Made by a program: the position numbers and the translations under genes. From the NCBI RefSeq assembly GCF_018143015.1, contig NC_054746.1, positions 26,364,464-26,428,463 on the forward strand: a stretch of DNA of 64,000 bases, read 5' to 3'. Below are positions 6,501 through 59,828 of the stretch, piece after piece (position 1 is the stretch's first letter; the number at the start of each line of letters is the position of its first letter). This DNA comes from Lytechinus variegatus (taxonomy: Eukaryota > Echinodermata > Echinoidea > Temnopleuroida > Toxopneustidae). The notes under the pieces were generated by a model that worked only from the letters and a program-made list of their open reading frames with translations, ran no database searches and was not told the DNA's origin.

Positions 6501-9500
6501 GCCTCACATTCTGACTTATTATTTAAGGTAAGAAAATTAAAAAATAATTTATTATTACATGTTGCTGAAAATCTTCTCTTGAATGTATAATTTCTTATGA
6601 TTTTAGGATTCAATGAATAGTAAGTGGTAGTATACAAAAGGTTTAATGAATTCTGAGAGCTACATCAAAGAATGATGACATTGCACTCCCTCGTAAAAAG
6701 TAGTATCTGAAGCTTTCTTTAAAAGTTAAGACCTTAAAGGACATGTCCACCCCAACAAAAAGTTGATTTGAATAAAAAGAGAAAAATCTAACAAGCACAA
6801 CTCTAAAAATTTCATCAAAATCGAATAAAAAAATAAGAAAGTTATGACACTTTAAAGTTTCACTTAATTTCACAGAATAGTTATATGCTCTCCCTGGTCA
6901 GTATGCAAATGAGGAAACTACTGACGTCATCCACTCACTATTTCTTTGGTATTTTATTACAAGAAATATGAAATATTCAATTTTTTCCTCATTATCAAGT
7001 GAAACAACGATTAATTCCTCCAGAACATGTGGAATTAGCGTTGTTGAATACTATATGGTTCAGTCAAGTTGGTCCTTATTGTCAAATCTGTAAAAAATGA
7101 ATTATTGTATAATTCAAACAATAAAAAACAAAAGAAATAGTGAGTGAGTGACATCATCGACTCTCAGTGAGTGACATCATCGACTCTCTCATTTGCGTGT
7201 CACTGGGTTGTGCATATTACTGTTTTGTGAAAAATTAAGCAAAACTTTAAAATGCCATAACTTTCTTATTTTACATCCGATTTTGATGAAATTTTCAGTA
7301 TTCTGCTAGATTGATTTTTCTCTATTTATTCAAATAAACATTTTTCTAGGGTGGACGTGACTTTTAAACAGGAATTAATGTGCAGTCAATGTTATAACTT
7401 TGTAAAAGCCAAGTTTGGTAAATGAATTCTTTAATGCACTCATAAAAATTTAAGAGCAAACTTTCTAGATGATCTATATTTTCTCGCAACGATTTATCAT
7501 ATACATGACACAGGTATATTTTTGTTAAAGTAACCTACGAATCTATATCTTGAATATGATGCAATCTTGTGAAAGTATGCTGTGGCATTTTTTTTTTTTC
7601 TATATTCAGGGGAGTACATGTTTGTAAAGACAATTTAGAAATTTTCAAATTTGACAATGTATGTACCATGATGAAATAGATGATATAAAGAAAAATCATA
7701 TTTCTATATGTAGACATTATCCAAAGAACTTTCAATTTATTAAAAGCTCTTGGCCCCCTTGTAAATTTATAACTTGAGGAATCATTTTTCATGTAATTAT
7801 CAAGAATGACAGACAGACTCTTTATTAGTATCACTGTTTTGCAATTAGACCAAAATTACATGTACATCTACTTTCTTTATTTTATCCTTTTCTACAAAAA
7901 ATCCACTACTGTCTGAACTTCCACACTCAAGTTTATGGAAAATATTTCCCTCATTCTTTACTATATTATCCTGGTAACAACATTCGGTTGGGTGCCATTG
8001 CATTTAATTTGTTTTAATAGCACAATTGCAGTAACTGCTAAAGCTACTGTAAATATTGAATTTTAATGGATTGATGGCAAATTTGTCATAAAAATCTGTA
8101 TTTGTTCTTCATAACAAATTGGAACCATGATCCCACTGCTGCCACCAATAATGCTGTAGCCAAGCAGTCTATGTCACATGAGTAAATATAGAAAGTCTAG
8201 GGATTTATTTCTGGCATAACAGTCATTTACTCTTGAGTAAAGTTGTTTTATCTACACCATTTAATGAAAATGCTATAGGCTTTATAGCACTTGTGCTTTT
8301 GTGTGAAGTTAGCCTATTTTATCTACATCCCTCTTTTATCTACATTATTTAATGAAAATGCTGTAGGCATTATAATATATAGCACTCTTGCTATTGGCAT
8401 TATCATAATATCATTTAAAGTATGCCTTCTGACAAGTTTCCTGTTCAGATAATTCTAGTTTCATGTGATATTTAAAGATTTATGTAAACCTATTTTAGTA
8501 GGGGGGTAGACATACAAATAAAACAAGAAATTAAATCATTTGATGTTTATAGGATTTCATGAAGATTATTGGTTGGGGCCAATTTTCAAATGAATAGATA
8601 AAGCATAAACTTTGAACAAAGAAAACAGCTACATCTACAGAGCCATTTAGGATTTTGTGACAATACAATCAAATTTGCATTAGGTAGGTTTGATCAAAGA
8701 TTTTCACTGAATACTTTAGAGAAACATGCTTTTATCGTAAACTTTGATAATTATCCAGGTACAATATACTTGTCATTCTAATGGTAATCAATGGAAATAA
8801 CTGTTTTTTTTATGGAATACCCAAGTTCCTTAACTATACAAGATCAAATGGCTTGTGATGTTTTTTAATATTATGCATTCTTATCTTTATAGAAATTTAT
8901 CTTGGCTCCCTTTCATTGTTCCTTGTTTTTTCTTCCTAATTCAGGATCTTTTCATGACTTTTAGTTGTACAATATACATGTGACTTGTTATCTTTCCTTT
9001 CATCGGTTAAGAGCAAGAACAGTTAATATACAACTAAAATCTTAGCGTACATGTGCCACTGATATGATTATGCAGAGGTGTGATTTAAAGATAATCAAGT
9101 GCCCCTCTTCACTATTGAGAGAAGTCAATCAATGTTCTCTTATAAGTAATGATGAAGTTCTTTTTCAGATACTACATTTACATACATTCATTATATAAGA
9201 GCAGTCAAACATTATAAATGGTTTGTAATTGAATTCTGATAATACAAGATTATATTACAAACTTCATGCTATTATCAAGGGATTATTAGATTAAATTTTG
9301 TATTGATAACCAATTTGATAATTCAAAACTTAATTGTGATAATAAAACTATTACCCTACTTATGTTTATTTGATATTAATAAGATGTTTGTTTGCCTTGC
9401 GTGCTAACGACTGTCAGATTACTTATTAAGTGGCTTAAATAGGGGAATGTAGCACTTCAACTCAACTCAGCGAATGCTAGTTTGTGATAACAGGTCCATG

Positions 9501-17482: not shown

Positions 17483-18345
17483 AAAGGTCAAGTCCACCCC
17501 CCCAAAATGTAGATTTAAATCAAGAGAGAAAAATCAAACAAAGACGAAAAAATTTCATCAAAGTTGGATGTAAAATAAGGCATTTTAATGCCATTTTAAA
17601 GTTTCACTTATTCTTAACAAAACAGTTATATGCATTACTCGGTAATAGGCACATTAGAGCAACAATGTCTCTCACTGCCCATTTCTTACGTTTTTTATTG
17701 TTTGAATTATACAATATTTCAATTTTAGTAAAACTTTAAAATGTCATGACTTTTAAAAAATTTCAATTATGATGAAATTGTTTTATTGTTACGCATGTTG
17801 GATTTTTTCCCCTATTCAAATCAACTTTTTGTTGGGGGTAGACTCGTCCCGCATACATTCGTAATTCCGAAGCTTCCTTATTCCGAAGCTTCGTTATTCC
17901 GAAGGTTCGTATTTCCGAAGGTTCGTTAGTCCGAAAACGAAATGAGGTTCGTAATTACGAAGGTTCGTTAGTCTGAAAACGAAGTGAGGTTCGTAAATCC
18001 GAAGGTTCTTTAACCCGAAAAAGAAATGAGGTTCGTAATTCCGAAGGTTCGTTAGTCCGAAAACTAAATGATTAACTTACCTTATTTTGATTTCGGACTA
18101 ACGAACCTTCGGAACAACAAACTTTATTTCGTTTTCGGATTAACGAACCTTCGAAACAACGAACTTTATTTCGTTTTCGGATTATCGAACCTTCGGAATA
18201 ACGCCACAAATGTTTGGATTAACGAACCCTTTTACGTTTTCGGATTAACGAACATCGAGGTATAGGCAATTTATGTGTTTCGGAATTACGAACCTTCGGA
18301 ATAAAGAACCTTCGGAATTACGAAGTGTAACCGACTTGTCCTTCA
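17483..18345. mobile_element. family A element, copy 2, shortened and split by a fold-back element
   Basis: The family A left end (AAAGGTCAAGTCCACC) begins at 17483. Its right end (CAACTTTTTGTTGGGGGTAG) is reached at about 17840. There the final bases are interrupted by the compact fold-back element at 17850-18332, after which the family A terminus resumes (GACTTGTCCTTCAG). The centre is shorter than in the full copies, implying an internal deletion. Confidence 0.7.
17850..18332. mobile_element. compact fold-back element with subrepeat arms
   Basis: The left arm is built of TTCCGAAGGTTCGTTAGTCC-like units and the right arm of their reverse complement (AACGAACCTTCGGAATAACG-like). The outer ends are GCATACATTCGTAATTCCG and, inverted, TTACACTTCGTAATTCCG. 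It is flanked by GACTCGTCC (17841-17849) and GACTTGTCC (18333-18341), a 9 bp near-identical pair that fits a target-site duplication in the end of a family A element. The ORF through the right arm (18068-18265) only translates the repeat. The 2 kb element at 41886 has the same arms. Confidence 0.75.
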
Positions 18346-21739: not shown

Positions 21740-22654
21740 AAAGTTATACATGTACAACAGCTTTTGGCAACTCTTTTTTATTTAAATATTGTAAGAAATG
21801 GATGAAGAGAACATTGTTCATTGTTCAAAACTCACCTTCACCCGACAAAGGAATATATAATTGGTATAGTGTCGAAAATCTGTCTATCTGACGGTCAATC
21901 GGATCGGGCTCGCCCTAGCTACTTACCGTCTCTGTGGTCTAGTGGTTAAGGCACCGGCGTTCAAAGCTGGGGGCCCGGGTTCGATTCCCGGCAGAGACAT
22001 TTTTTCGGCATCACCAATTTTTCCAAAGGGTAGATAGCTCTGGGGAACCTTGATTTAAGCTACGCCTACCATTGTTCTCTTCATACATTTCTTACAATAT
22101 ATATATATATATATATATACGCGGGATGATACGCCCAGTTATTCGATATAATCCAATTTAGTTTTACCGTTGTATCTTCTCAGGACAATTGTTTTTTTCT
22201 AGAACACTCATCTTCTACACTCTAAAACATATTGTATTAAAAAAGTTTATAATACGGAGGAGTGAGAGGACCACATCAAGCATTTTACACTAAGATAGCA
22301 CTGAAATCCGTGTATTTGGTGTTGTATATTCACAGATGGTGTCGATCGATCTTAATCATGTTAACATCGTAGCTTTTTCAGTGCAGGCCCTACCATGCAG
22401 GCTTTGAACACCCGATTTAAAAATCCTTGAAAACATCATTCATGAAAAGGAAAAATTAAACGAAACGCGAAAAAATAGAAGTGAAGATAAGACCTACCAG
22501 CTTCAATCTTCAGGACATCCTTGTTTCCAATGACTTCTGTCAAAACCTTTCCATATTGCTTGAGTTTATGGATAATCCTGGAGTAGAGTTCCGCATCTTG
22601 ACGTCCACCCTGGATGCTGCCACAAAAATAGATCTTCAAATCTTTGGTATCCAT
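19586..22654 (-). CDS. DNPH1: DNPH1-like 2'-deoxynucleoside 5'-phosphate N-hydrolase, copy 1
   Basis: Minus-strand exons are 22654-22498 (ATG at 22654), 21517-21461, 20472-20362 and 19686-19586 (TGA). Phases fit and give 141 aa, versus about 163-174 in mammals. Family members cleave the N-glycosidic bond of deoxynucleoside monophosphates, releasing base and 2-deoxyribose 5-phosphate, and sanitise hydroxymethyl-dUMP. Visible motifs are IYFCGSIQGGR (phosphate loop), YQQDIAWL (the Asp equivalent to rat Asp69), VVAEVTQPSLGVGVELGRA (Glu equivalent to rat Glu93), LCLFRP, and VLSAMVRGA (Ser equivalent to rat Ser117). The loop residue that is Arg in rat Rcl (Arg19, GSIR) is Gln here (codon CAG), which may impair catalysis. 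The last acceptor lies behind a run of 12 C on the coding strand; I chose CAAG| because it restores VLSAM. Introns hold a tRNA-like gene and a miniature transposon. The paralogue is at 29972-36211. Confidence 0.9.
19691..20361. other. last intron of DNPH1 copy 1, with a repeat fragment
   Basis: Between 20080 and 20165 a decayed copy of the repeat seen at 63084-63195 is recognisable (ACAACTTTCCTTGAT, then GGATAAAAAGTCCAACAAGTCC). The remainder is AT-rich with a poly-G/poly-C tract at the acceptor side and shows no gene. Confidence 0.4.
20647..21042. mobile_element. inverted-repeat element with iterated GTCTAAT/ATTAGAC motifs, copy 1
   Basis: The left arm contains ATGGTTTATTTCCAATTAGT, CAATTGCCAACTCGTCTACT and CCACATGGTCTAC. 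The right arm carries the reverse complements in mirror order (GTAGACGAGTTGGCAATTGG, GGAAATAAACCATTTATTC). Between them is a series of short GGTCTAAT / ATTGGACCA motifs. It is about 395 bp and non-coding. Related copies are at 33228-33545 and, much decayed, 28830-29160. It lies in the intron between exons 2 and 3 of DNPH1 copy 1. Confidence 0.7.
21676..21729. repeat. (TA)n microsatellite
   Basis: A TA dinucleotide run of about 54 bp, followed by a short TG run. A second TA run (about 22097-22120) lies on the other side of the tRNA-bearing unit. Confidence 0.95.
21786..22100. mobile_element. inverted-repeat unit carrying a tRNA-like gene, flanked by TA runs
   Basis: The left end ATATTGTAAGAAATGGATGA continues into AGAGAACATTG (to 21816). 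It is mirrored at 22100-22071, with one main mismatch over about 30 bp. The tRNA-Glu-like gene sits between the arms. Both ends abut TA-rich sequence, consistent with an insertion in, or expansion of, a TA microsatellite. No target duplication can be separated from the TA runs. Confidence 0.6.
21928..21999 (+). tRNA. tRNA-Glu (anticodon TTC)-like gene
   Basis: The cloverleaf can be drawn by eye. Acceptor arms are GTCTCTG/CAGAGAC and the D-arm GTCT..AGGC has the loop AGTGGTTA. The anticodon stem CCGGC/GCTGG (one G-U) has the loop GTTCAAA, hence anticodon TTC. The variable region is 4 nt, and the T-arm CCGGG/CCCGG has the loop TTCGATT. The A box (TGGTCTAGTGG) and B box (GGTTCGATTCC) match eukaryotic tRNA-Glu. 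A T-run at 22000 fits Pol III termination. Position 32 is G where a pyrimidine is usual. It lies in intron 1 of DNPH1 copy 1 on the opposite strand, inside a small inverted-repeat unit, so it may be a dispersed tRNA-like repeat rather than a working tRNA. Confidence 0.75.
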
Positions 22655-38480: not shown

Positions 38481-38721
38481 AGGTGTGCACTTGTTTAAAA
38501 AAAAAGAGACAGTGCGTCCCACAAAAAGAAAATGAACGAAACCGAGATTTAACAACAATTTTTTTTTCATAACCTAATGAACAAGAGACAAATGATTATT
38601 CCTCTTCACGCATGAGTGAGCAAAAACAGTTTGAAGACGGGATACTAAAACGTCACTAGGCGGGCTGCAGTATCTGGATTTCAAATAGAAAACCACAATT
38701 GTAAAAAGTTCAACATCTGCT

Positions 38722-39328
38722 CTTTAAAGGTCAAGTCCACCCCAGAAAAATGTTGATTTGAATAAATAGAAAAAAATCAAACTAGCATAACACTGAAAAT
38801 TTCATCAAAATCGGATGTAAATTAAGAGAGTTATGACATTTATTCGCATATTTTCCTCAAAACACTGTTTTGAGCACAACTCAGTGATATGCAAATGCGA
38901 GAGTCTATGATGTCTATCACTCACTATTTCTTTTGTATTTAATTGTTTTATACAATATTTCAATTTATACAGAATTGACAATAATGTAAAATTTGACTGA
39001 AGTACATAATGTTAAACACTATAATTCTACAAGTTCAGGGAAGAATAAAGTTCGATTTCAAATGACATGGGTGAAAAAAATCAGAATATTTCCATATTTC
39101 AGATGATAAAATACAAAAGAAATAGTGAGTGCGTGATGTCATCAGTCCCCTCATTTGCATACTGGCCAGGATGTGCATATAACTGTTGTGTGAAATTAAG
39201 CGAAACTTTAAAATGTCATAACTTTCTTATTTTACATCCGATTTTGATTAAATTTTCAGTGTTATGATTGTTGGATTTTTCTCTTTTTATTCAAATCAAC
39301 TTTTTGCTGGGGTGAACTTGTCCTTTAA
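38722..39328. mobile_element. family A element, copy 4
   Basis: It begins TTTAAAGGTCAAGTCCACCC and ends GGGTGAACTTGTCCTTTAA, with long inverted arms containing TTTCATCAAAATCGGATGTA and the mirrored TACATCCGATTTTGAT. It is about 607 bp. The ORF at 39067-39267 merely crosses the right arm. Confidence 0.8.
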
Positions 39329-41404: not shown

Positions 41405-41885
41405 GTCTGGGGCAGAGCCCCCGGAACGGTGATATTTTTAAACATTGCAGATGGCCACCTTATTATCAAACCCCGGGTATCATAGAGATATATTAGTATA
41501 TATCTCTATGAGGTACACAACAGATAATAAACGAAATATTTTAAGGCGGCAAAACATAGCAAATATGGTAGAATTTGAAAAAAAAGTCGCCAGAGAGCGG
41601 AGCGAGCCAGAAAAATTTGGCCTTTTTAAAAAAAAAATTGAAATTAAATTCTGATGTGACGACAGCTTTGAGAATTTACCAAAGCAAACATTGTGAGGCC
41701 TCTTTTGTCCGGTAAATCTAGCAGGCGTAAAGCTCTCTACTCATGGGTTATGATCGACATAGGGGGATATATAACTAGCTCTTGGCTAAGAACTTGTTTG
41801 TCCTGATTGCGACCATTATTGCATAAAATTTATCAAGCTTATTGACGCCATCCACCTTTCTTCTCGTTCTTTATATAACCTAATC

Positions 41886-43935
41886 CGCATACATTCATAA
41901 TTCCGAAGCTTCGTAATTCCGAATGTTCGGTTATTCCGAAGGTTCGTATTTCCGAAGGTTCGTTAATCCGAAAACGAAATAAGGTTCGTTAGTCCGAAAA
42001 CAAAATGAGGTTCGTAATTCCGAAGGTTCGTTAATCCGAAAACGAAATGAGGTTCGTAATTCCGAAGGTTCGTTAATCCGAAAACGAAATGAGGTTCGTA
42101 ATTCCGAAGGTTCGTTAATCCGAAAACGAAATGAGGTTCGTAATTCCGAAGGTTCGTTAATCCGAAAACGAAATGAGGTTCGTAATTCCGAAGGTTCGTA
42201 AATCCGAAAACGAAATAAGGTTCGTTAATCCGAAAATTAAATAAGGTTCGTATTTCCGAAAATGAAATTAATTCATTTTGGTAACAAGAACGGTGCTGTT
42301 CTTGCAAGATAATAGGATATTATGCAATGATAAACTAACGAACGATGATATATGTGTGTGTTGTGGCCAAAGCATGTATCGATTTAAGAATAGGCGCCCG
42401 GATCAAACATACGCTTAATTTCGATTTTATCTGAGCAAATGCTGCCCAAGCAAATGGTTTAAAGATGCAGCTGGGGGATTAAGTGTGTTGGTCGTTTGCG
42501 AGTAACCTCCAGATAATAATATTTGTATTGGAGGGGATGTCATTTTTAATAAGAGCTTCTCCTGAAAATTAATCTAAAATGTATACTTTAATACCCTTTT
42601 TACACAGGATTTTCTGAACCCCGGACTATCGCTAACCCCGTACTATCCTTAACCCCGTACTATTTTTTTTTTCCTTTTCACACATGCCAACTTGTTATTG
42701 CTAACCCCGGATAAGGAATGCTTGCTTTTTACACACGAAACTCGCTAACCCCGGACTAGTGGTTTTTGTCGATCATTCGTAGTACAAGTGCTTCACTCCC
42801 TTTTTACACACGCTACAATTTCCTTAACCCCGTACTATAGATGGGGCCAAATTGCCATTTAGCCCCACCTATAGTACGGGGTTAAGCTTAGCCCACTTTC
42901 GTTTTACACATGCGATCTTAACCCCGTACTATTGCTCTTAGCACCGCAATTGGTGGGATAACCCTGCTTTTTTGCAGGGCCAAATAATCCCGTACTATAG
43001 GTGGGGTTAGCCCACTTTGCAAAAACGCTGTGTAAAACGAAAGTGGGCTAAGCTTAACCCCGTACTATAGGTGGAGCTAAATTGCCATTTAGCCCCACCA
43101 ATAGTACGTGGTTAAGGAAATTTTAGCCTGTCTAAAAAGGGTATAAATGAAGTATTGATTTTGAAAAAAAGGTATTTCCCATTTTGGAAAAATAGCATTT
43201 CCCTGTTATTTCTTTAGGTGTGCAAGTGCCCCCTGCTACCCCCCCCGGCGGTTCCAACTTTCGCCAATGGGGGGGGGGCGAACTTTTTTCACCCATAATT
43301 TCCCGGATTGGCAGCTTTAAAGTTGATTTTTTGTTTGTTTGTTTCTTTGAAAGGGTATTCCTAATAGCCAATAAAAATAAAGTAAATATGTAATAATATC
43401 ATAAGCCCTTGTTAAATAATGCAAGCGCGAAGCGCGAGCTATAGTTTTCGTTGAAAGTTTTGGTAAAAATGTCCGTTTGCACCAAAATGCCCTTTTTGGC
43501 ATATAAATGCACTTAAATCAATACATGCTTTGGCCACAACACATATATCGTCGTTCGTTAGTTTATCATTGCATAATATCCTGTTATCTTGCAAGAACAG
43601 CACCGTTCTTGTTACCAAAATGAATTTAATTTCATTTTCGGAAATACGAACCTTATTTAATTTTCGGATTAACGAACCTTATTTCGTTTTCGGACTAACG
43701 AACCTTCGGATTAACGAACCTTATTTCGTTTTCGGACTAACGATCGACCTTCGGAATAACGAACCCTATTTCGTTTTCGGATTAACGAACCTTCGGAACA
43801 ACGAACCTTATTTCGTTTTCGGATTAACGAACCTTCGGAACAACGAACCTTATTTCGTTTTCGGATTAACGAACATCGAGGTAAAGGCAATTTACGTGTT
43901 TCGGAATTACGAACCTTCGGAATTACGAAGTGTAT
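41886..43935. mobile_element. 2.05 kb fold-back element with ~42 bp subrepeat arms
   Basis: The left arm (41886 to about 42385) has about seven copies of a unit read as TTCGTAATTCCGAAGGTTCG plus TTAATCCGAAAACGAAATGAGG. This is followed by a unique inner part (GTAACAAGAACGGTGCTGTT to GTGGCCAAAGCATGTAT). The right arm (about 43515-43935) mirrors both parts with about 95 percent identity in the unique inner section. The outer ends match the compact copy at 17850. TAATC flanks both sides (41881-41885 and 43936-43940), a possible short target duplication. The centre holds another nested element (42591-43144). The repeated EPHFVFGLTNLRNY-type peptide on either strand is a by-product of the repeat. 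Confidence 0.8.
42591..43144. mobile_element. nested inverted-repeat element with TTAACCCCGTACTATAG motifs
   Basis: The ends ATACCCTTTTTACACAGG and CCTGTCTAAAAAGGGTAT are inverted copies. TTAACCCCGTACTATAG or its complement recurs about eight times in both orientations. The element is about 554 bp, non-coding, and inserted in the centre of the fold-back element at 41886-43935. Confidence 0.75.
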
Positions 43936-45671: not shown

Positions 45672-48340
45672 TATTTGAAAGTTGAAAGTTGAATTGAATT
45701 ACCAAATATCACGGTACAATTACAAGGAATAGTACATCACATATAAACAAAACATTTGGCAATTCGAGCTAACATAATAGCAAGATGCTAATCGAGGTTA
45801 GCCCCAAATAACGTCATTATCATAATTTAAACAATAAAATTAACCAAATCTCAATATTGTACATCAAATTCAATACTAATTCTACTTATTACTGTTGCAG
45901 AAAGTTTCGATCATTTACAGTGAACATATTTACACTATTTACAAGAAAAAAAAATCTTAATTATTCACAAAATCTTTATATAGAATTATTTGTTTTTAGG
46001 CAATATTTTTCCATACCAAATTAATTATAATCTTCTAGTAGCATTAATTTTAACGATTTGCTAAATGTCTTACGAATGGGGGTGTTTCTAATATTACTTG
46101 GCAGATGATTCCATAAAGTAGGACCAGAAAATGAAATTGATTGTTTTCCCAAATTGGCATTATTTTTGTCAAGATTAACATTTCGCTTTTCTCTATTTCT
46201 TGTATTGTAAGGATGGTCTATAAATGAAAAATAATCAATAGAACTATGTGGCAACCGATTATTAATTAAATCGTGCATAAATACTCCTATCAAATATTGG
46301 TATTGTTTGAAAATATCGAGAATATTTAGATCATGAAATAAAGGAGCAGAGTGATAAGTATGATGGTTGAACGTCATTATTCTAGCTATTCGTTTTTGAA
46401 GTAATAATATAGGGTTCAGGGTTGTTTTGCACGTCCCACCCCATACTTCCAGACCATACGTTATATGTGGTAAAATTAATAAGTTGTATAACATAACTAA
46501 GATTGTTTTGTTACATAATTCCTCAATCTATAAAGTATTCCAATTTTTTTGCTAAGCACATTGCAGACAATGTCAACCTGTTTCTTCCATGTTAGGTTTT
46601 TGTCGATACATATACCAAGAAATAATGTTGATTCAACACACTCTAATAAGTTTCCTTTCAGTGACAATTGTTCTGATATAAAAATATTTTTTTCGTCTAT
46701 TTTTAAACAACATATATTTAGTTTTCGTAACATTGATTGTCAATTTGTTGGCATTGCACCATGCTACTATATTGTTTAAATTTAGACTAATTTCTGATAA
46801 ATCAATATGTTGTTCATCACAATTGAAAGTATGAAATAAATTTGAGTCATCCGCAAAAAGTCGGAAATTGAAATAATTTGAGGAGTTTGCCAGATCGTTT
46901 ATATACAACAAGAACAAAGTTGGACCCAAAACTGATCCTTGTGGAATACCGCATGAAATCGACCTGTATTCGGAATTTTTACCATCATAATTAACAAATT
47001 GCTTTCTGTTTCGTAAATAATCATTAAACCATTCTACTGCCTTACCACGAATGCCATACACTCTAAAAAATGAAGTGCTAATTTAGCTCTTAAAGAGCGT
47101 GTATAGTGACTGCACTTCTAAGTGCTGATTTTTCTCGTTCAAATTTGAACTAGACAAATCAGCACTCCGAAGTGCAGTCACTATACACGCTCTTTAGGAG
47201 CTAAATTAGCACTTCATTTTTTAGAGTGTGGTGTTCTAGTTTCTTAATGAGAATAGAATGATTAATCGTATCAAAAGCTTTAGCAAAATCGATGAATATT
47301 CCTACTGTCACCTTTCCTTCATCAGTATATCTTGTAATTTGATTAATCAGATTTATCAGTGAAAGTTTCGTACTGTATCCATTTCTAAAACCATATTGGT
47401 GTTTATACAATATTTCATTCTTTTCTATGAATTTCATCAATCGTGCATTCACTAGTTTTTCAAATATTTTGCTAATCGCGGGTAAAATTGATATTGGTCT
47501 ATAATCTCCAGGTATTTCTTTATCTCCCTTTTTGAAAACTGGTATAACTCTTGCAACTTTTAATCTATCTGGAAAATGCCTGTGGTAAATGATAGATTGA
47601 ATATATGCGAAAGAGGTTTGCAAATACAATTCATAGCATATATCAACAGTCGAACTGATATATCATCATAGCCACTTGCTTTAGATTGATCAAGAGTGTA
47701 TAACATTTCTTCAACTTCTGAACTTGTTATTGGCAGGAAGAAAAATGTTTGACTAATGTATGGACCCATGAACTCTCGGTAATAATATTTGGCTCCTCAA
47801 TTTTCTCAGCTAGATTTTCCCAATAGTAGAGAAATAATTGTTGAGTGAATTTGCTATATCATCAGATGAAGTAATTTCGGAAGGTTCATTTTCTTGGTTA
47901 ACAACTAATTTGTTAATTTTTTAATACAGATTCGAACCACTATTTTTATTCAAAAGTTCATTGATATGACTCCAAGTTTTCTTTGAATCTCTTTTGTCTG
48001 CTTCAAACTTATGTTCATAATGCATTTGCTTTTCTTTCCTTAAGACGTTTGTTAACTGATTTCTGTATTTTTTTTATATTTATTCAAACAATCTTTATTA
48101 TAATTTGATTTTATAACTTTAGAAAAAAGTTTGTGCTTTGTCGATATTGAACGCTTAATACATCGTGTTATCCAGGGTTTATTTTTCTTTTTCTTTTTAA
48201 CACATTTTGTCTCAATAGGAGCATGTTTATTACAAACAAATAAGAACTGTCTTTGAAAAATATTGTAAGCTTCATTTGGATCCATACATTCTAAAGCGCT
48301 TTTCCAAAAATCAGTAGTGACATATTTACGGGTCATATTG
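45672..48340 (-). mobile_element. 5'-truncated non-LTR retrotransposon (LINE; Jockey/CR1/L2-like group)
   Basis: Minus-strand fragments read in order: a linker upstream of RT (48336-48052, with KNKPWITRCIKRS), early RT motifs (47769-47201, with VARVIPVFKKGD, DYRPISILP and FIDFAKAFDTINH), the RT core (47061-46633, with GIPQGSVLGPTLFLLYINDL and the catalytic FADDSN), then thumb and C-terminal region (46733-46021, with LFLGICIDKNLTWKKQ, LPHITYGLEVWGG and GPTLWNHLPSNI). The endonuclease domain is missing, so the 5' end is truncated at about 48340. Frame changes lie near 46500, 46650-46730 and 47560-47630, and one transposon interrupts RT (47059-47228), so it is a dead copy. The 3' end is placed at about 45672 by an iterated AACTTTC tail. 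Clade placement beyond the Jockey/CR1 group is uncertain. Confidence 0.88.
47059..47228. mobile_element. 170 bp Tc1/mariner-type MITE inserted in the LINE
   Basis: It is an almost complete palindrome: CACTCTAAAAAATGAAGTGC on the left is mirrored by GCACTTCATTTTTTAGAGTG on the right, and the inner arms (AGAGCGTGTATAGTGACTGC) also pair. The left flank is TA (47057-47058) and the right flank is TG (47229-47230). Removing the element plus one flank rejoins the LINE reading frame as KLEH-YGIRGKAVEW, showing a TA target duplication with one drifted base. Confidence 0.88.
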
Positions 48341-52779: not shown

Positions 52780-52923
52780 GCGGATCCAGGATTTTTCGAT
52801 AAAAATTTGACAAGAAAAAAAAAAGAAAAAAAAGTTTTCCCCTCAAATTTAAGGTCATTTCGTCAAGCAAAAAAAAAAAAATAAATAAAAAAAAAGGTTC
52901 TCACTTTCAAAGGGGGGGGGGGG
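52780..52923. repeat. GCGGATCCAGGATTT repeat, left part
   Basis: TTGCGGATCCAGGATTTTTC is followed by TTTGACAAG, A-rich sequence, TCTCACTTTCAAAG and a poly-G tract. It stops where the giant fold-back element begins. The other part, with a mirrored TTGGATCCGCC, is at 59829-59900. Confidence 0.55.
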
Positions 52924-53147
52924 CTGTTACACCCACAAATGTAATAATCGCCCACAAATGTAATAACGCCCACAAATGTAATAACACTTTACCCACAAAT
53001 GTAATAACGCCCACAAATGTAATAACACTTTACCCACAAATGTAATAATTTCACCCACAAATGTAATAATGCACTTTACCCACAAATGTAATAATTTTTG
53101 ATCGCCCACAAATGTAATAATGACTTTACCCACAAATGTAATAAATT
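52924..53147. repeat. terminal array, left arm: ten copies of CCCACAAATGTAATAA
   Basis: Ten copies are separated by short spacers of variable length (CG, CACTTTA, TTTCA, TGCACTTTA, TTTTTGATCG, TGACTTTA). The encoded ICGRYYICG / HLWVKCIITFVG-like peptide (52927-53133 minus) is a repeat artefact. Confidence 0.95.
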
Positions 53148-53217
53148 TGAAGGGATTTTTGGCAAATCCGTTTTGAACTAAAATCGTATAGTAATGCGTT
53201 CATATAGCACACAAGTG

Positions 53218-54735
53218 CAAAGTCTCTTTTCCTGACCCGGTTAATTAACAAATTATAACATAAATCCAAAGTCTTTATTCCAGACCCGGTTGTTTCAAAA
53301 ATTATAATATAAATCCAAAGTCTTTATTCCAGACCCGGTTGTTTCAAAATTATAATACAAGTACAAAGTCTTTATTCCAGACCCGGTTATTTAAAAAATA
53401 ATCATATGAGCCTAAAGTCTTTATTCCAGACCCGATTGTTTCAAAAATGATAATATAAGTCCAAAGTCTTTTCTCCAGACCCAGTTGTTTCAAAAATTGT
53501 AATATAAATCAAAAGTCTTTATTCCAGACCCGGTTGTTTCGAAAATAATAATATAAATCCAAAGTCTTTATTCCAGACCCGGTTGTTTCGAAAATAATAA
53601 TATGAGCCCAAAGTCTTTATTCCAGACCCGGTTGTTTCAAAAATAATAATATGAGCCCAAAGTCTTTATTCCAGACCCGGTTGTTTAGAAAATAATCATA
53701 TGATTCAAAAGTCTTTATTCCAGACCCGATTGTTTCAAAAATGATAATATAAGTCCAAAGTCTTTTTCCAGACCCTGTTGTTTCAAAAATTATAATATAA
53801 ATCAAAAGTCTTTATTCCAGACCCGATTGTTTAGAAAACAATAATATAAATCCAAAGTCTTTATTCCAGATCCGGTTGTTTAGAAAATAATCATATGATC
53901 CAAACGTCTTTATTCCAGACCCGATTGTTTCAAAAATGAAAATATAAGTCCAAAGTCTTTTCTCCAGACCCGGTTGTTTCAAAAAAATAATAATATAAAT
54001 CCAAAGTCTTTATTCCAGACCCGGTTGTTTAGAAAATAATAATATAAGTCCAAAGTCTTTATTCCAGAAGCGTTTGTTTAAAAAATAATTATATAAGCCA
54101 AAAGTCTTTATTCCAGACCCGATTGTTTCAAACATGATAATAAAAGTCCAAAGTCTTTATTCCAGACCCGGTTGTTTAAAAAATAATAATGCAAGTCCAG
54201 TCTTTTTCCAGACCCTGTTGTTTCAAACATCCTGATATGAATCCAAAATCTTTTTTTCCAGACCCGGTTGTTTAAAAAAATCATGATATAAATCCAAAAT
54301 CTTTTTTCCAGACCCGGTTATTTAAAAGATTATAATTTTAGTCCCAAATGAGATACATTAATGACATTCCAGTGGAATAAAAATGAGAATCGAGCTTAGT
54401 CTTTTCTCCAGACGCTAATTGTAAATTGAAAATCAAGCATAGTCTTTGCTCCAGACCCGGTAACTAAAAGCTGGAACTTTATAGTAATGTGTTTATATAG
54501 CACAAAAATGCGAAATCTTTTTTCCAGACCCGGTTAATTAAACAATTATAAGTCCAAAGTGTTTTTTCCAGACCCATTTATTTAAAAAATTATAATAATT
54601 ATAAAAAACAAAGACCCACGATCCCATTTATGTTGAATAACATGGAAATGTAGCGTAGTCTTTCTGTCAGACCCAGTTATAAAAGTCATTAAAACACAAC
54701 AACAACAACAAAACAAAGACCCAGCAACCATTAAA
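53218..54735. repeat. left-arm tandem array of a ~49 bp unit
   Basis: About 22 regular units with the core AAAGTCTTTATTCCAGACCC followed by GGTTGTTT and an AT-rich spacer run from 53230 to about 54340. More diverged units (CTTTGCTCCAGACCCGGTAA and similar) continue to about 54700. Confidence 0.9.
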
Positions 54736-55331
54736 GGTCAAGTCCTCTTCAGAAAAATGTTGATTTGAATCAATAGAGAAAAATCAGACAAGCACAATGC
54801 TGAAAATTTCATCAAAATCGGATGTAAAATTTATGACATTTCAAAGTTTCACTTATCTTTAACAAAATATTTATATGAACGAGCCAGCTACATCCAAATG
54901 AGAGAGTCGATGATGTCACTCACTCACTATTTCTTTTGGTTTTAATTGTTTGAATTATAGATTATTTCAATTTTTACGAATTTGACGATTAGGACCTTGC
55001 CTAAAGCACAAAATGTTAAAATAATAAATTTCCACGTGTTGCAGGGAGGAATGAAACTTCATTTCACATGACAATGACGAGAAAATAAAAATATTTCATA
55101 TTTCATTTAAGAAAATACAAAAGAAATAGTGAGTGAGTGATGTCATCAGTTCCGCATTTGCATACCGACCGAGATGTACATATAACTGTTTTGTGAAATG
55201 AAGCGAAACATTAAAATGCCATAACTTTCTTATTTTACATCCGATTTTGATGAAATTTTCAGTGTTATGCTTGTTGAACTTTTCTCTTTTTATTCAAATC
55301 AAGTTTTTGTTGGGGTGGACTTGTCCTTTAA
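54731..55331. mobile_element. family A element, copy 5, inside the giant fold-back element
   Basis: It starts TTAAAGGTCAAGTCCTCTTC and ends GTTGGGGTGGACTTGTCCTT, with the full inverted arms of the family (TTTCATCAAAATCGGATGTA and its mirror). About 600 bp. It lies at the inner edge of the left arm, so it inserted into the giant element or was captured by it. Confidence 0.8.
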
Positions 55332-55342
55332 AAAAATAATTT

Positions 55343-56620
55343 TTTGTATATTCCTTCCTTTTTTCTATGAAAAAACCTAAATAACAAAACATTTTAATAC
55401 ATATGAAAAAAACCCTGAGAAATAAGATATCAGTAAACAATAGGGGGATTACTTCCCGAAAACGATAAAGTTGTTGATTGACGATCTATGATATATTATA
55501 TAAAAGAAAAACATTCTAACAAGAGGGGATAACCATTCCATTCCATGTTTTTGTTTGGCAATAAGTCATGATTGACTATTTTTGCCACCCACTGTATGAG
55601 AAGTAGGGTAGCAATTTTTTTAAGTATTATTTTTATTACTTCTTTTTGTCTCACCTGCATAGCAGAGTGAGACTATAGGCGCCGCTTTTCTGACGGCGGC
55701 GGCGTCAACATCAAATCTTAACCTAAGGTTAAGTTTTTGAAATGACATCATAACTTAGAAAGTATATGAACCTAGTTCATGAAACTTAGCCATAAGGTTA
55801 ATCAAGTATTACTTAACATCCTATTAGAGTTTCATGTCACATGACTAAGGTCAAAGGTCATTTAGGGTCAATGAACTTAGACCATTTTGGGGGAATCAAC
55901 ATCAAAATCTTAACCTGAGGTTAAGATTTTGAAATATCATAACTTAGAAAATATATAGACCTGGTTCATTAAACTTAGGCATAAGGTTAATCAAGTATCA
56001 CTGAACATCCTCTGTGCATTTTAGGTCACATGACCAAGGTCAAAGGTCAATAAACTTTGGCCATAATGGGGGTATCTGTTGAATTACCATCATAACTTTG
56101 CAAGTTTAATGATCTGACTTTTGAAACTTGGACATAAGAGTAATAAAGTATCACTAAATATCCTGTGCAAGTTTCAGGTCACATGATCAAGGTCAAAGGT
56201 CATGTGAGGTCAATGAATTTTGGCCACATTGTTTTCTTTTGTTGAATTACCATCCTATCTCTGTAAGTGTATTGGTCTACTTCATAAAACATGGAAATAA
56301 GAGTAACCAAGTATCACTTAACATCTTGTGCGAGTTATAGCAGTTTTCAAAGTCAGCACTGCTGCTATGTTGAATCGCGTGATGCAGGTGAAATGGTCAG
56401 AGGCATTCCACTTGTTTATTATTATTATTTCTTGTATATTCATTCCTTTTTTTATGAAAAAAACACACAAAACCTTTAAATACATATAAAACAAAAAACT
56501 GAGGAATAAGATATCAGCACACAATATGGGGATTACTTCCCGTAAACGATAAGGTTGTTGATCGACGATCTATGAGATATTATATTAAGAAAATCATTCT
56601 AACAAGAGGGGATAACGTTT
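55343..56620. repeat. ~200 bp direct repeats flanking a receptor-motif satellite
   Basis: A block at about 55343-55546 recurs in the same orientation at about 56424-56618. It includes ATAAGATATCAGTAAACAAT, GGGGATTACTTCCCG and TCTAACAAGAGGGGATAAC. Between them (55650-56400) are about four diverged tandem units of roughly 150-190 bp. These carry CATAAGGTTAATCAAGTATC and TCACATGACCAAGGTCAAAG blocks. Confidence 0.7.
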
Positions 56621-56941
56621 TAACAAGTTCTTCGGTACTTTAAATTTTCAGTGTCCCAAGCACCATTTGTAATATATTCAGCATTTTTTTTATTACTTAC
56701 AATTCCAATAATCTCAGTGGCCTAAGATATATTTTCTGGGGTTATAAGTAAAGAGAGAGAGAGAGAGAGGATTTATGTGATCAAGAAGTGATAAGATAGG
56801 AAAAAAACTGATTTGAAATTACTGAGAGAGAGACAGGCAAAGAAAGAAGAGCCCCTCCCACACCCGTACTATAGTTACGGAGTTAGGCTGTCTCGTCGGT
56901 GGATTCAGGTCCATCAATATCTTGAGGTTTAATCTTTCCAG

Positions 56942-57126
56942 GGGGCAAACGTGTGTGTGTTTGAGTTTTGTCAGACGTGTCTCAATCAGATATGATTATT
57001 ACGTCTGGGACCGACCTTTAACGTCACCATCCGAAAGACGTGACCAGGGCTCGAACCTCGAACCTCTGCATCAATTTGTAACTTCCCCACATAGCTTGGA
57101 TTACAGGCGCACGCCACAACGCCCAG
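56942..57126 (-). mobile_element. SINE with a 7SL/Alu-like head
   Basis: Read on the minus strand, it starts CTGGGCGTTGTGGCGTGCGC then CTGTAATCCAAGCTA, closely like the 5' end of 7SL RNA and Alu. It continues to a Pol III B box (GGTTCGAGCCC at about 57044-57054). The body has GTCACGTCTTTCGGATGGTG, GGTCGGTCCCAGACG and a CAAACACACACACG simple-repeat tail. The ORF on the other strand (56922-57191) is not a gene. Confidence 0.6.
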
Positions 57127-59490
57127 TCTTTAAATATGGTGTAGTCTTTGCTCTAGACCCATGCAGTTATTTCAAAATAGGAAATTATTAGAAACGATAA
57201 AAACAGACAAACAATATTAACAAAGACGCCACAATATCATTGATGTAGAATAAGGTTGTTGTTGTTGTTGTTGTTATTTTGGGTTTTTAAGGCGCGTACC
57301 ATTCAGATCTGAATATTGACGCCTTTTATTAATTTGACGTTTTTGTGGTATGCCTTATTATCACAGGGTTTTATATTTTGGGAGATGCTGGTGTCTAAGT
57401 TTTTAGATTAATCTTTTGCTTAATTTGTATTTTAAGAGAACTGGATGTGGGGTAAAGACAACTCTCTAAACCCAAGCATTTTAACTGGGTTTAATTTTAA
57501 AGATTGGTCTTAGCTTTGATTTTTTTTTCAATATTTGTTTATCTTATAAATAGCTGGGTCTAGACGAAGGTCTAAGCATAATAATGATGTTATTTAACAG
57601 GAATAAGAATATGACAAAGTCTTATGTTTTTAAGATTGTTTGAATTAATTTCTAAATGACTGGGTCTGGAATAGAGACAACGCTCTAAACATGTGCTTTT
57701 GTACCTGGTCTTAATTTAGAGGATTGTTGGTTCTTAGATTCGTTGTTGGGGGTTGGGTTTTATTGTTTTTTTATTCTTGAAATAATTGTATCTGCAGGAA
57801 AGTCTACAATCGATCTCCATGTTATTCCACAGTAGTTAGATTATTGGGTATTTGTTTTAAACAATTTTATTTTTAAATAATAACCAAGTCTGGAAAATGG
57901 ACGTTTTCTTTGCAAATTGATAATTACAATGTTTTGTAGGGTCTTAGTATTTTTATACAAAATAATGTGGGTGTGGGGTACAGACATATTTTTTACTGGG
58001 TGTAACTTTTGAAAACTGGTTTTAGATTTGATTTTCTTTTTTAATTCATTTCTTAGATAACCTGGTCTGGAGGAAAGAGTACGTTTTACAACTCATGTTA
58101 TTCCAAGAGAATATGATAGGGTCTTATGTTAGAAGATTTTTTTTCGTAATTTTTGTAATGATTAGGTCTGGAATAAAGACAACATTCTAAACCTCTTTTT
58201 AAAAACATGTTCTTAGGTTCAAGGATTGCTTGGTGTTAGATTTGGAGTTATTTATATTTTTACTCTTAGCCTTATTTTGAAAAACAAATGACTGGGTCTG
58301 GCTGAATGACTACGCTATATGTCCATGTTATCCAGCATTAATAAGATTATGGGGTCTTTTGTTGTTGTTGTTGTATTGTTATTTACAATTTTTGAATAAC
58401 AGGGTTTGGAGAAAAGGCTAAGCTCGATTTTCTTTTTTTCCACTGGAATATCATTATGGTATCTTAGTTTGGACTTACATTATAATTTTTGAAACTACTG
58501 CGTCTGGAAAAAGACTTTGGTCTTTTGTGCTATATAAAGGCATTACTATAGGGTTTTAGTTTTTAGTTTTAAATAACCGGGTCTGGAGAAAAGACTATGC
58601 TTGATTCTCAATTTACTCATAGCGCGTATATTTACAATACGTTCAGTATCATTTAAAACAACAACAAAGACTTTGATTCCACCAGTTTTAATTAACTGGA
58701 TCTGGAGAGAAGACTAGGCTCGATTCTCATTTTTATTCCACCGGAACATCATTATCGTATCTTAGTTTGGACTTAAATCATAATATTTGAAACAATCGGG
58801 TCTGGAATAAAGACTTTGGACTTATATTATTATTTTTTAAACAACCGGGTCTGGAATAAAAACTTTGGATTTATATTATAATTTTTGAAACAACAGGGTC
58901 TGGAAAAAGACTTTGGATTTATATTATAATTTTTGAAACAACCGGGTCTAGTGAAAAGACTTTGGACTTATCATTTTTGAAACAATCGGGTCTGGAATAA
59001 AGACTTTAGGCTCATATAATTATTTTTTAAACAACCGGGTCTGGAATAAAGACTTTTTACTTATATCATATTTTTTTAAACAACCGGGTCTGGAATAGAG
59101 ACTTTGGGCTCATATTATTATTTTTGAAACAACCGGGTCTGGAATAAAGACTTTGGGCTCATATTATTATTTTCGAAACAACCGGGTCTGGAATAAAGAC
59201 TTTGGATTTATATTATTATTTTCGAAACAACCGGGTCTGGAATAAAGACTTTTGATTTATATTACAATTTTTGAAACAACTGGGTCTGGAGAAAAGACTT
59301 TGGACTTATATTATCATTTTTGAAACAATCGGGTCTGGAATAAAGACTTTAGGCTCATATGATTATTTTTTAAATAACCGGGTCTGGAATAAAGACTTTG
59401 TACTTGTATTATAATTTTAAACAACCGGGTCTGGAATAAAGACTTTGGATTTATGTTATAATTTGTTAATTAACCGGGTCAGGAAAAGAG
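57120..59490. repeat. right-arm tandem array of the ~49 bp unit
   Basis: This is the mirror of the left-arm array. Regular units with AACCGGGTCTGGAATAAAGA run from about 58780 to 59470, and strongly diverged units (GGGTCTGGA.. with long AT spacers) extend inward to about 57120. A (GTT)n run lies at about 57254-57276. Confidence 0.85.
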
Positions 59491-59569
59491 ACTTTGCACT
59501 TGTGTGCTATATGAACGCATTACTATACGATTTTAGTTCAAAACGGATTTGCCAAAAATCCCTTCAAAT

Positions 59570-59789
59570 TTATTACATTTGTGGGTAAAGTCATTATTAC
59601 ATTTGTGGGCGATCAAAAATTATTACATTTGTGGGTAAAGTACATTATTACATTTGTGGGTGAAATTATTACATTTGTGGGTAAAGTGTTATTACATTTG
59701 TGGGCGTTATTACATTTGTGGGTAAAGTGTTATTACATTTGTGGGCGTTATTACATTTGTGGGCGTTATTACATTTGTGGGTGCAACAG
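59570..59789. repeat. terminal array, right arm: ten copies of TTATTACATTTGTGGG
   Basis: This is the reverse complement of the left terminal array, with the same spacer order from the inside out. The ORFs over it (59581-59805, 59700-59960) are artefacts. Confidence 0.95.
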
Positions 59790-59828
59790 GGGCACACTTG
59801 GGTGAAACCGGTATTTTACATCACAAAT

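What the first reader, a model, noticed from the sequence alone, without database searches (positions are those of the whole stretch)
52924..59789. Giant 6.9 kb fold-back element whose arms are mirrored arrays of arrays
Both arms carry ten copies of CCCACAAATGTAATAA with the same spacer lengths in mirror order, then a stretch I read as identical, then ~49 bp units that match one for one near the ends. The left arm has one extra unit. Arrays that grew independently would not keep order and spacer identity, so the arms look recently copied or homogenised as a whole while the inner units are old and diverged. No transposase is visible. Seen directly: structure and mirror order. Inference: recent arm conversion or inversion-duplication.
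Basis: seen in the sequence. Interest (0 to 1): 0.8.

Follow-up and report, generated by a model that had tools for sequence, protein, structure and literature searches.

The report
Sea-urchin fold-back jumping gene family
The mirrored structure is one copy of an abundant, recently active sea-urchin transposon with long mirror-image arms that often inserts into runs of G or C, and in this copy one arm appears to have been recently overwritten by the other.

Summary
The element spans 52925-59788 (6,864 bp), flanked by a 5-bp target duplication GGGGC. It is no one-off inversion: the genome (870 Mb; a sea urchin by its bindin genes) holds 1,764 exact copies of the 23-bp terminus. Of 15 copies with both flanks read, 12 have exact and 3 one-mismatch 5-bp duplications; 771 of 1,764 termini abut GGGGG or CCCCC; 38 of 38 other scored places carry the window's insertion site uninterrupted. 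Mirror order is mainly inherited: 8 of 14 long copies read have ten units at both ends, while short (~2.1 kb) copies have unequal arms.

At two sites the left (A-end) arm carries letters found in 10 of 27 other G-end arms and 0 of 15 other A-end arms. The outermost 24 bp escaped.

No copy read shows a transposase, and no partner was found. Ends TGTTR...YAACA with 5-bp duplications resemble Ginger2/TDD or LTR-retrotransposon integrases rather than the Mutator type (8-10 bp) usual for fold-backs; that assignment is inference. New variant of a known kind.

The parts
52920..52924 (.). left copy of the 5-bp target-site duplication GGGGC
   Evidence: identical to 59789-59793; joined flanks rebuild an interspersed repeat found uninterrupted at 38 of 38 other scored places (8 of them aligned)
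52925..59788 (+). whole fold-back element, 6,864 bp (TGTTAC...GCAACA)
   Evidence: termini shared with 869+895 exact genome hits of TGTTRCACCCACAAATGTAATAA, reversed-pattern control 0
52925..52948 (+). A-end: outermost 24 bp (TGTTA..., extra T at 52948), not overwritten in the arm conversion
   Evidence: A at base 5 defines this end; extra T in 9 of 10 A-ends and 0 of 23 G-ends
52932..53144 (+). left array of ten 16-bp units CCCACAAATGTAATAA
52949..53665 (+). outer left arm inside the near-identical tract (inferred recipient of the conversion)
   Evidence: one substitution against the right arm plus one 50-bp unit; T at bp 249 and C at bp 288 in 0 of 15 other A-arms and 10 of 27 other G-arms
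53213..54344 (+). left array of ~49-bp units, ~23 copies
53296..53345 (+). 50-bp unit present on the left only; probably lost from the right arm later (placement within the array is ambiguous)
   Evidence: the left arm matches the G-arm of another copy, L060, over 378 bp without a gap
54731..55331 (.). nested ~600-bp inverted-repeat element, also aligned in the four other copies compared
   Evidence: copies at 6734-7371 and 38720-39328; aligned columns in L031-L034
55336..55533 (+). direct repeat 1 flanking the nested CACCTGCAT repeat (86% to repeat 2)
55652..56391 (.). nested repeat with CACCTGCAT...ATGCAGGTG ends (limits by eye)
   Evidence: read; aligned columns in L032-L034, absent from L031
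56424..56616 (+). direct repeat 2
57446..58432 (-). core shared with the four short ~2.1-kb copies read whole (74-78% identity)
   Evidence: L035-L038
58766..59501 (-). right array of ~49-bp units, ~15 copies
59099..59765 (-). outer right arm inside the near-identical tract (inferred donor)
59570..59781 (-). right array of ten 16-bp units
59766..59788 (-). G-end terminus (TGTTG... on the minus strand)
59789..59793 (.). right copy of the target-site duplication GGGGC

Best explanation
It is one copy of a high-copy, recently active, non-autonomous fold-back DNA transposon of a sea urchin. A transposase supplied in trans, most likely of the integrase type (Ginger2/TDD-like), probably recognises the ends TGTT(A/G)CACCCAC and perhaps the 16-bp arrays, and inserts the element, often into G- or C-runs, with a 5-bp staggered cut. 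The mirrored arms come from a founder of the long subfamily. In this copy or its immediate source the outer ~0.7 kb of the A-end arm was then overwritten by conversion from a G-end arm, most simply its own, sparing the last 24 bp; the right arm later probably lost one 50-bp unit. Shown: family, 5-bp duplication, G/C-run enrichment, empty site, near-identical tract with a sharp end. Inferred: direction, donor and timing of the conversion, role of the arrays, absence of coding in the whole family, type of transposase (about 0.4 on its own; the confidence below is for the rest).
For: Terminus pattern 869+895 hits, control 0. 5-bp duplication exact in 12 of 15 elements not chosen by their flanks, one mismatch in the other 3. 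GGGGG-adjacent 411 and CCCCC-adjacent 360 of 1,764. Of 32 plus/minus pairs within 15 kb among the first 100 listed termini (all on C1), 21 have at least one such flank, 15 of those have G5 on one side and C5 on the other, none G5/G5 or C5/C5. Empty site at 38 of 38 other scored places. Four long copies differ pairwise by 0.97-1.37% over ~3.2 kb of interior. 29 of 32 pairs have one A-end and one G-end. Tract: one substitution in 667 aligned bases; at 560-640 bp only the copy's own right arm matches the left arm 80/80, six other arms 74-77; letters at bp 249 and 288. TGTNR ends with 4-5 bp duplications are described for Ginger2/TDD (PMC2836005, PMC10045372; passages).
Against: No autonomous copy was found; integrase searches gave nothing tied to these ends. 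Ginger2 of animals makes 4-bp duplications in AT-rich RTATAY targets, unlike the 5-bp G/C-run targets here. Three of 32 pairs have the same letter at both ends. Without allowing for the 50-bp unit the two arms of this copy differ by 10 of 427 bases, no less than arms of different copies (1.3-1.9% mean). One other A-arm, L033, shares the window arm's letters from about bp 335 on, and L060 shares one of them, so the haplotype argument rests on bp 249 and 288. Own-arm similarity in long elements is confounded with subfamily structure.
Confidence: 0.85

Rival explanations
1. A locus-specific inverted duplication of a tandem-repeat region, with no transposon involved.
For: The structure is mirror-symmetric with no evident gene.
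Against: 1,764 exact termini genome-wide, 5-bp duplications and empty sites.
Confidence: 0.01
2. A fold-back mobilised by a Mutator-type (MULE) transposase, as suggested for most fold-back elements, including Tetris.
For: Same anatomy; most fold-backs are placed there (PMC4079207, passages).
Against: Tetris duplications are 8-10 bp; here they are 5 bp. Ends TGTTR...YAACA are not a MULE signature (recalled).
Confidence: 0.1
3. A non-autonomous element mobilised by the integrase of an LTR retrotransposon rather than by a DNA-transposon transposase.
For: TGTNR ends and short duplications are also those of Gypsy LTR elements (PMC2836005; PMC10045372 gives 3-6 bp for LTR retrotransposons); 150 of 150 scored rve candidates matched, of 1,102 in the first look, many in long open frames.
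Against: Arms are inverted, no direct LTRs seen. Primer-binding and polypurine sites were not looked for. No LTR with the same ends was looked for or identified beyond five loci.
Confidence: 0.2
4. The near-identity of the two outer arms in this copy reflects only descent from a founder with identical arms, not a later conversion.
For: 8 of 14 long copies have ten units at both ends; long arms share several subterminal letters; L033's A-arm shares the window arm's letters from about bp 335 on.
Against: One substitution in 667 aligned bases within this copy against 0.97-1.37% between interiors of four copies; bp 249 and 288 letters in 0 of 15 other A-arms and 10 of 27 other G-arms, Fisher p 0.007 (the arms are related, so p is only a guide); identity ends abruptly at 53666.
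Confidence: 0.1
5. Assembly artefact: one arm assembled twice.
For: Long inverted repeats are hard to assemble (recalled).
Against: The two ends carry different terminal letters and different inner sequence and lie in a matching target site; the same anatomy recurs on other chromosomes.
Confidence: 0.02

Closest known systems
TU fold-back elements of the sea urchin Strongylocentrotus purpuratus (recalled; original papers not held; a sea-urchin fold-back is cited in PMC4079207, passage)
   Same: Sea urchin; long inverted arms with an outer domain of short (~15 bp) tandem repeats and an inner domain (all recalled).
   Different: TU elements are remembered as making 8-bp duplications; this family makes 5-bp ones and favours G/C runs. 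Sequences could not be compared.
Galileo (P superfamily) of Drosophila
   Same: Long internally repetitive arms, many copies without transposase; conversion between arms and copies proposed (PMC3573991, passages).
   Different: 7-bp duplications and, in some copies, transposase sequence, described as defective.
Tetris and Mutator-type fold-backs
   Same: Arms contain tandem repeats; no autonomous partner found (PMC4079207, passages).
   Different: 8-10 bp duplications, 220-bp units, three complete copies.
Ginger2/TDD DNA transposons
   Same: TGTNR termini; 4-5 bp duplications, 5 bp in TDD-4 and TDD-5 (PMC2836005, passages).
   Different: Described arms are about 50-180 bp and targets AT-rich RTATAY; here arms exceed 1 kb, G/C runs are favoured, and no transposase is known.

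Membership tests
Fold-back (FB-type) transposons | Long inverted arms built of tandem subrepeats | tested here: met
Fold-back (FB-type) transposons | Dispersed copies flanked by target-site duplications | tested here: met
Mutator-type fold-backs | 8-10 bp target-site duplication | tested here: not met
   5 bp; 8-10 bp from PMC4079207
Sea-urchin TU elements | Sequence of the ~15-bp outer repeat (recalled) | not testable with these tools
   TU sequences not held; four forms of the 16-bp unit have no hit in the paper library
Sea-urchin TU elements | 8-bp target-site duplication (recalled) | tested here: not met
   5 bp
Ginger2/TDD | TGTNR termini | tested here: met
   TGTTA/TGTTG; definition from PMC2836005
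Ginger2/TDD | 4- or 5-bp target-site duplication | tested here: met
   5 bp; range quoted in PMC10045372
Ginger2/TDD | RTATAY (AT-rich) target | tested here: not met
   771 of 1,764 termini abut five Gs or five Cs; the others were not typed genome-wide
Ginger2/TDD | H2C2 plus DDE integrase-type transposase in an autonomous copy | tested here: inconclusive
   no partner found; search not exhaustive
LTR retrotransposon | Direct long terminal repeats | tested here: not met
   the ends are inverted repeats

The most novel reading that the evidence does not exclude
A fold-back family moved by an integrase-type transposase that seeks homopolymeric G:C tracts: a target preference and an enzyme class that I know from no fold-back element, with an A-end/G-end asymmetry mostly kept (29 of 32 pairs) despite arm-to-arm conversion, suggesting that the two ends play different roles in the transposition complex.
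Probability: 0.35. Interest if true: 0.65.

Novelty: new variant of a known kind. Interest (0 to 1): 0.45.

Why it matters
The family gives hundreds of natural experiments on how long inverted arms are homogenised: end-specific letters make conversion tracts readable copy by copy. Its enrichment in G or C runs is a strong target preference for a DNA transposon, and its ends point away from the enzyme class usually assumed for fold-backs. Copies about 1% apart suggest that many insertions may still be polymorphic (inference).

Tried and rejected
Autonomous partner: rva_4 (PF24764; 35 matches, two loci read, L058 and L059) and rve (PF00665; 150 scored of 1,102 first-look candidates, three short-frame loci read, L100-L102). 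None of these five loci showed a TGTT(A/G)CACCC end (one TGTTGCACAT in L102), but they are only 3.4-5.0 kb long, so ends farther out would be missed. L100-L102 look by eye like broken Gypsy-like elements. Copies checked for open frames: window, L031-L038 (longest 76-126 aa), L055 and L056 (longest 104 and 129 aa), L115-L117 (longest 139, 86, 124 aa); several of these are only parts of the copy. Extra 2.6-5.0 kb stretches in four large copies (L055, L056, L115, L117): of 28 stop-to-stop frames of 75 aa or more there, the 19 scanned against Pfam, plus one window frame, gave only matches under the curated cut-offs to unrelated families, the best E 3.9e-5 for DUF2170; 9 were not scanned.

Empty site for copy L033: the joined flanks matched essentially only their own halves, so they give no related empty site.

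Permutation test of own-arm against other-arm distance: long copies 0.0614 within, 0.0794 shuffled, 0 of 10,000 shuffles as low; short copies 0.1377 against 0.1344, p 0.69. The long result is confounded by subfamilies and I lean on the tract instead. Seven of 54 arms had no anchor and were left out of the block alignment, so the short test used 8 of 13 elements.

Rows dropped: four arms that repeat the same copies; five duplicate loci and the five most diverged long elements (L064, L066, L068, L072, L076). Arms L002-L030 were the best hits to the window's left arm, not a random sample. The pairs L060-L099 were picked from the GGGGG and CCCCC lists, so their matching flanks are by construction and are not counted.

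Paper searches; of the papers only search listings, starts of abstracts and the passages were seen.
Full report
What is there. The window lies in an 870-Mb genome of 33 contigs. Bindin, the sea-urchin sperm protein family, is found at two places on C13 (four matches) and in 0 of the tool's 14 control genomes, so the host is very probably a sea urchin; size and chromosome number remind me of Lytechinus variegatus, which I did not test. The element runs from 52925 to 59788. Each end begins TGTT(A or G)CACCCACAAATGTAATAA and continues with ten 16-bp units, a ~70-bp unique stretch and an array of ~49-bp units. The middle holds a core shared with short copies and several nested repeats that other long copies also have, in part or whole.

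It is a transposon copy. The 23-bp terminus occurs 869 times on one strand and 895 on the other, with no hit for the reversed pattern. With the 427-bp left arm end as query, 40 candidates were scored of 2,197; all 40 have a match over essentially the whole query at 98-100%, the window itself included. Fifteen elements had both flanks read without choosing them by flank: 12 have an exact 5-bp duplication, 3 have one mismatch. 411 termini abut GGGGG and 360 abut CCCCC, together 771 of 1,764; by composition alone (17.5% G, 17.5% C) about 0.03% would be expected, a hand estimate. The tool lists only the first 100 termini, all on C1. Of 32 plus/minus pairs within 15 kb among these, 21 have at least one such flank, 15 of these have G5 on one side and C5 on the other as a 5-bp duplication requires, and none has G5/G5 or C5/C5.

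Empty site. The joined flanks of the window copy, with one GGGGC removed, gave 40 places (40 scored of 1,895 candidates): two are the window's own flanks and the other 38 all run across the junction. Eight of the 38 were read and aligned; all eight are continuous through the G-run, five of them with GCACA directly after it as in the window. The element therefore inserted into a common G-run-bearing repeat. The same test for copy L033 found no relative.

Sizes and age. The 32 pairs fall into 11 of 2.06-2.56 kb and 21 of 4.06-12.5 kb. Four long copies differ pairwise by 0.97-1.37% over ~3.2 kb of interior.

Why the arms mirror each other. Each of 27 elements with both ends read has one A-end and one G-end (not a random set), as do 29 of 32 pairs in the C1 list; two are A/A and one G/G. 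In the 13 short elements the arms have different arrays, 8-12 units at the A-end and 5-10 at the G-end; 8 of 14 long elements have ten units at both ends, the other six have 6-12 (counting units with up to three mismatches). Seven subterminal sites separate short A-arms from short G-arms. At the four nearer the end, long A-arms carry the G-arm letter (13 of 13 at three sites, 10 of 13 at one), as if the A-arm had been overwritten in the founder. At the three farther in, both long arms carry mostly the short A-arm letter (12-13 of 13 A-arms, 11 of 13 G-arms), so the founder was a mosaic or the short G-arm changed there. The direction of change cannot be rooted here.

The recent event in this copy. 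Beyond the two differences in the last 24 bp, 52949-53665 and 59765-59099 differ by one substitution in 667 aligned bases and one 50-bp unit; at 53666 the identity falls abruptly. An alignment that did not open the gap gave 10 of 427 differences for the same arms, no fewer than between copies. At bp 249 and 288 the left arm carries letters seen in 10 of 27 other G-arms and 0 of 15 other A-arms. At most other variable sites the letters are less exclusive, and from about bp 335 the A-arm of L033 shares them. At 560-640 bp only the copy's own right arm matches the left arm 80/80; six other arms score 74-77. Farther in, the left arm matches A-arms and the right arm matches G-arms. A conversion tract of about 0.7 kb copied from a G-arm, most simply its own, into the A-arm is the simplest account. 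The left arm matches the G-arm of copy L060 over 378 bp without a gap, so the 'extra unit' on the left is probably a unit lost on the right. Two more of nine young long elements with both arms read (L031, L098) look converted by eye.

Mechanism and enzyme. No copy read has a frame longer than 139 aa within the parts read, and none looks like a transposase. TGTNR ends and 4-5 bp duplications are the signature of Ginger2/TDD transposons, and TGTNR also of Gypsy LTRs (PMC2836005 and PMC10045372, passages), whereas the Mutator-type fold-back Tetris has 8-10 bp (PMC4079207). I therefore favour an integrase-type transposase acting in trans, at about 0.4, with capture by an LTR-element integrase as a serious rival. 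The G/C-run preference fits neither described Ginger group exactly (CCGG/CCGT for Ginger1, RTATAY for Ginger2). That arm repeats act as extra binding sites is reported for Galileo in PMC4079207 and is only an analogy here.

What is new. Fold-backs with tandem-repeat arms are long known, also from sea urchins, and arm conversion has been proposed for Galileo (PMC3573991, passages). The combination of integrase-like ends, 5-bp duplications, G/C-run enrichment and end-specific letters that make conversion tracts readable did not appear in my searches, which cover an open-access library only and were seen as listings and passages.

Noticed in passing
window 41885-43929 and 17854-18329: Two members of another fold-back-like family with arms of 16/42-bp units (GGTTCGTAATTCCGAA); arms 42026-42388 and 43512-43874 are 93% identical in inverted order. 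Target duplication not settled.
   Followed up: partly
G000 contig C1, first 4.27 Mb: 70 of the first 100 listed termini (the list covers C1 up to 29.8 Mb) lie in the first 4.27 Mb, about 16 per Mb against 2 per Mb genome-wide: a strong local cluster near one contig end.
   Followed up: no
window 6734-7371, 38720-39328, 54731-55331: Three copies of a ~600-bp inverted-repeat element with ends near TTAAAGGACAAGTCCACCCC; the third is nested in the fold-back element.
   Followed up: partly
window 56826-57120: A stretch with CAGGGCTCGAACC, like a tRNA-gene B box on the minus strand, that may be a tRNA-derived SINE carried by long copies (by eye; no tRNA or Rfam call there).
   Followed up: no
window 46021-47662, minus strand: Reverse-transcriptase-like frames of a broken non-LTR retrotransposon (by eye).
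   Followed up: no
window 21928-21999: ARAGORN calls a tRNA with anticodon tca (labelled SeC) and Rfam calls a tRNA here.
   Followed up: no
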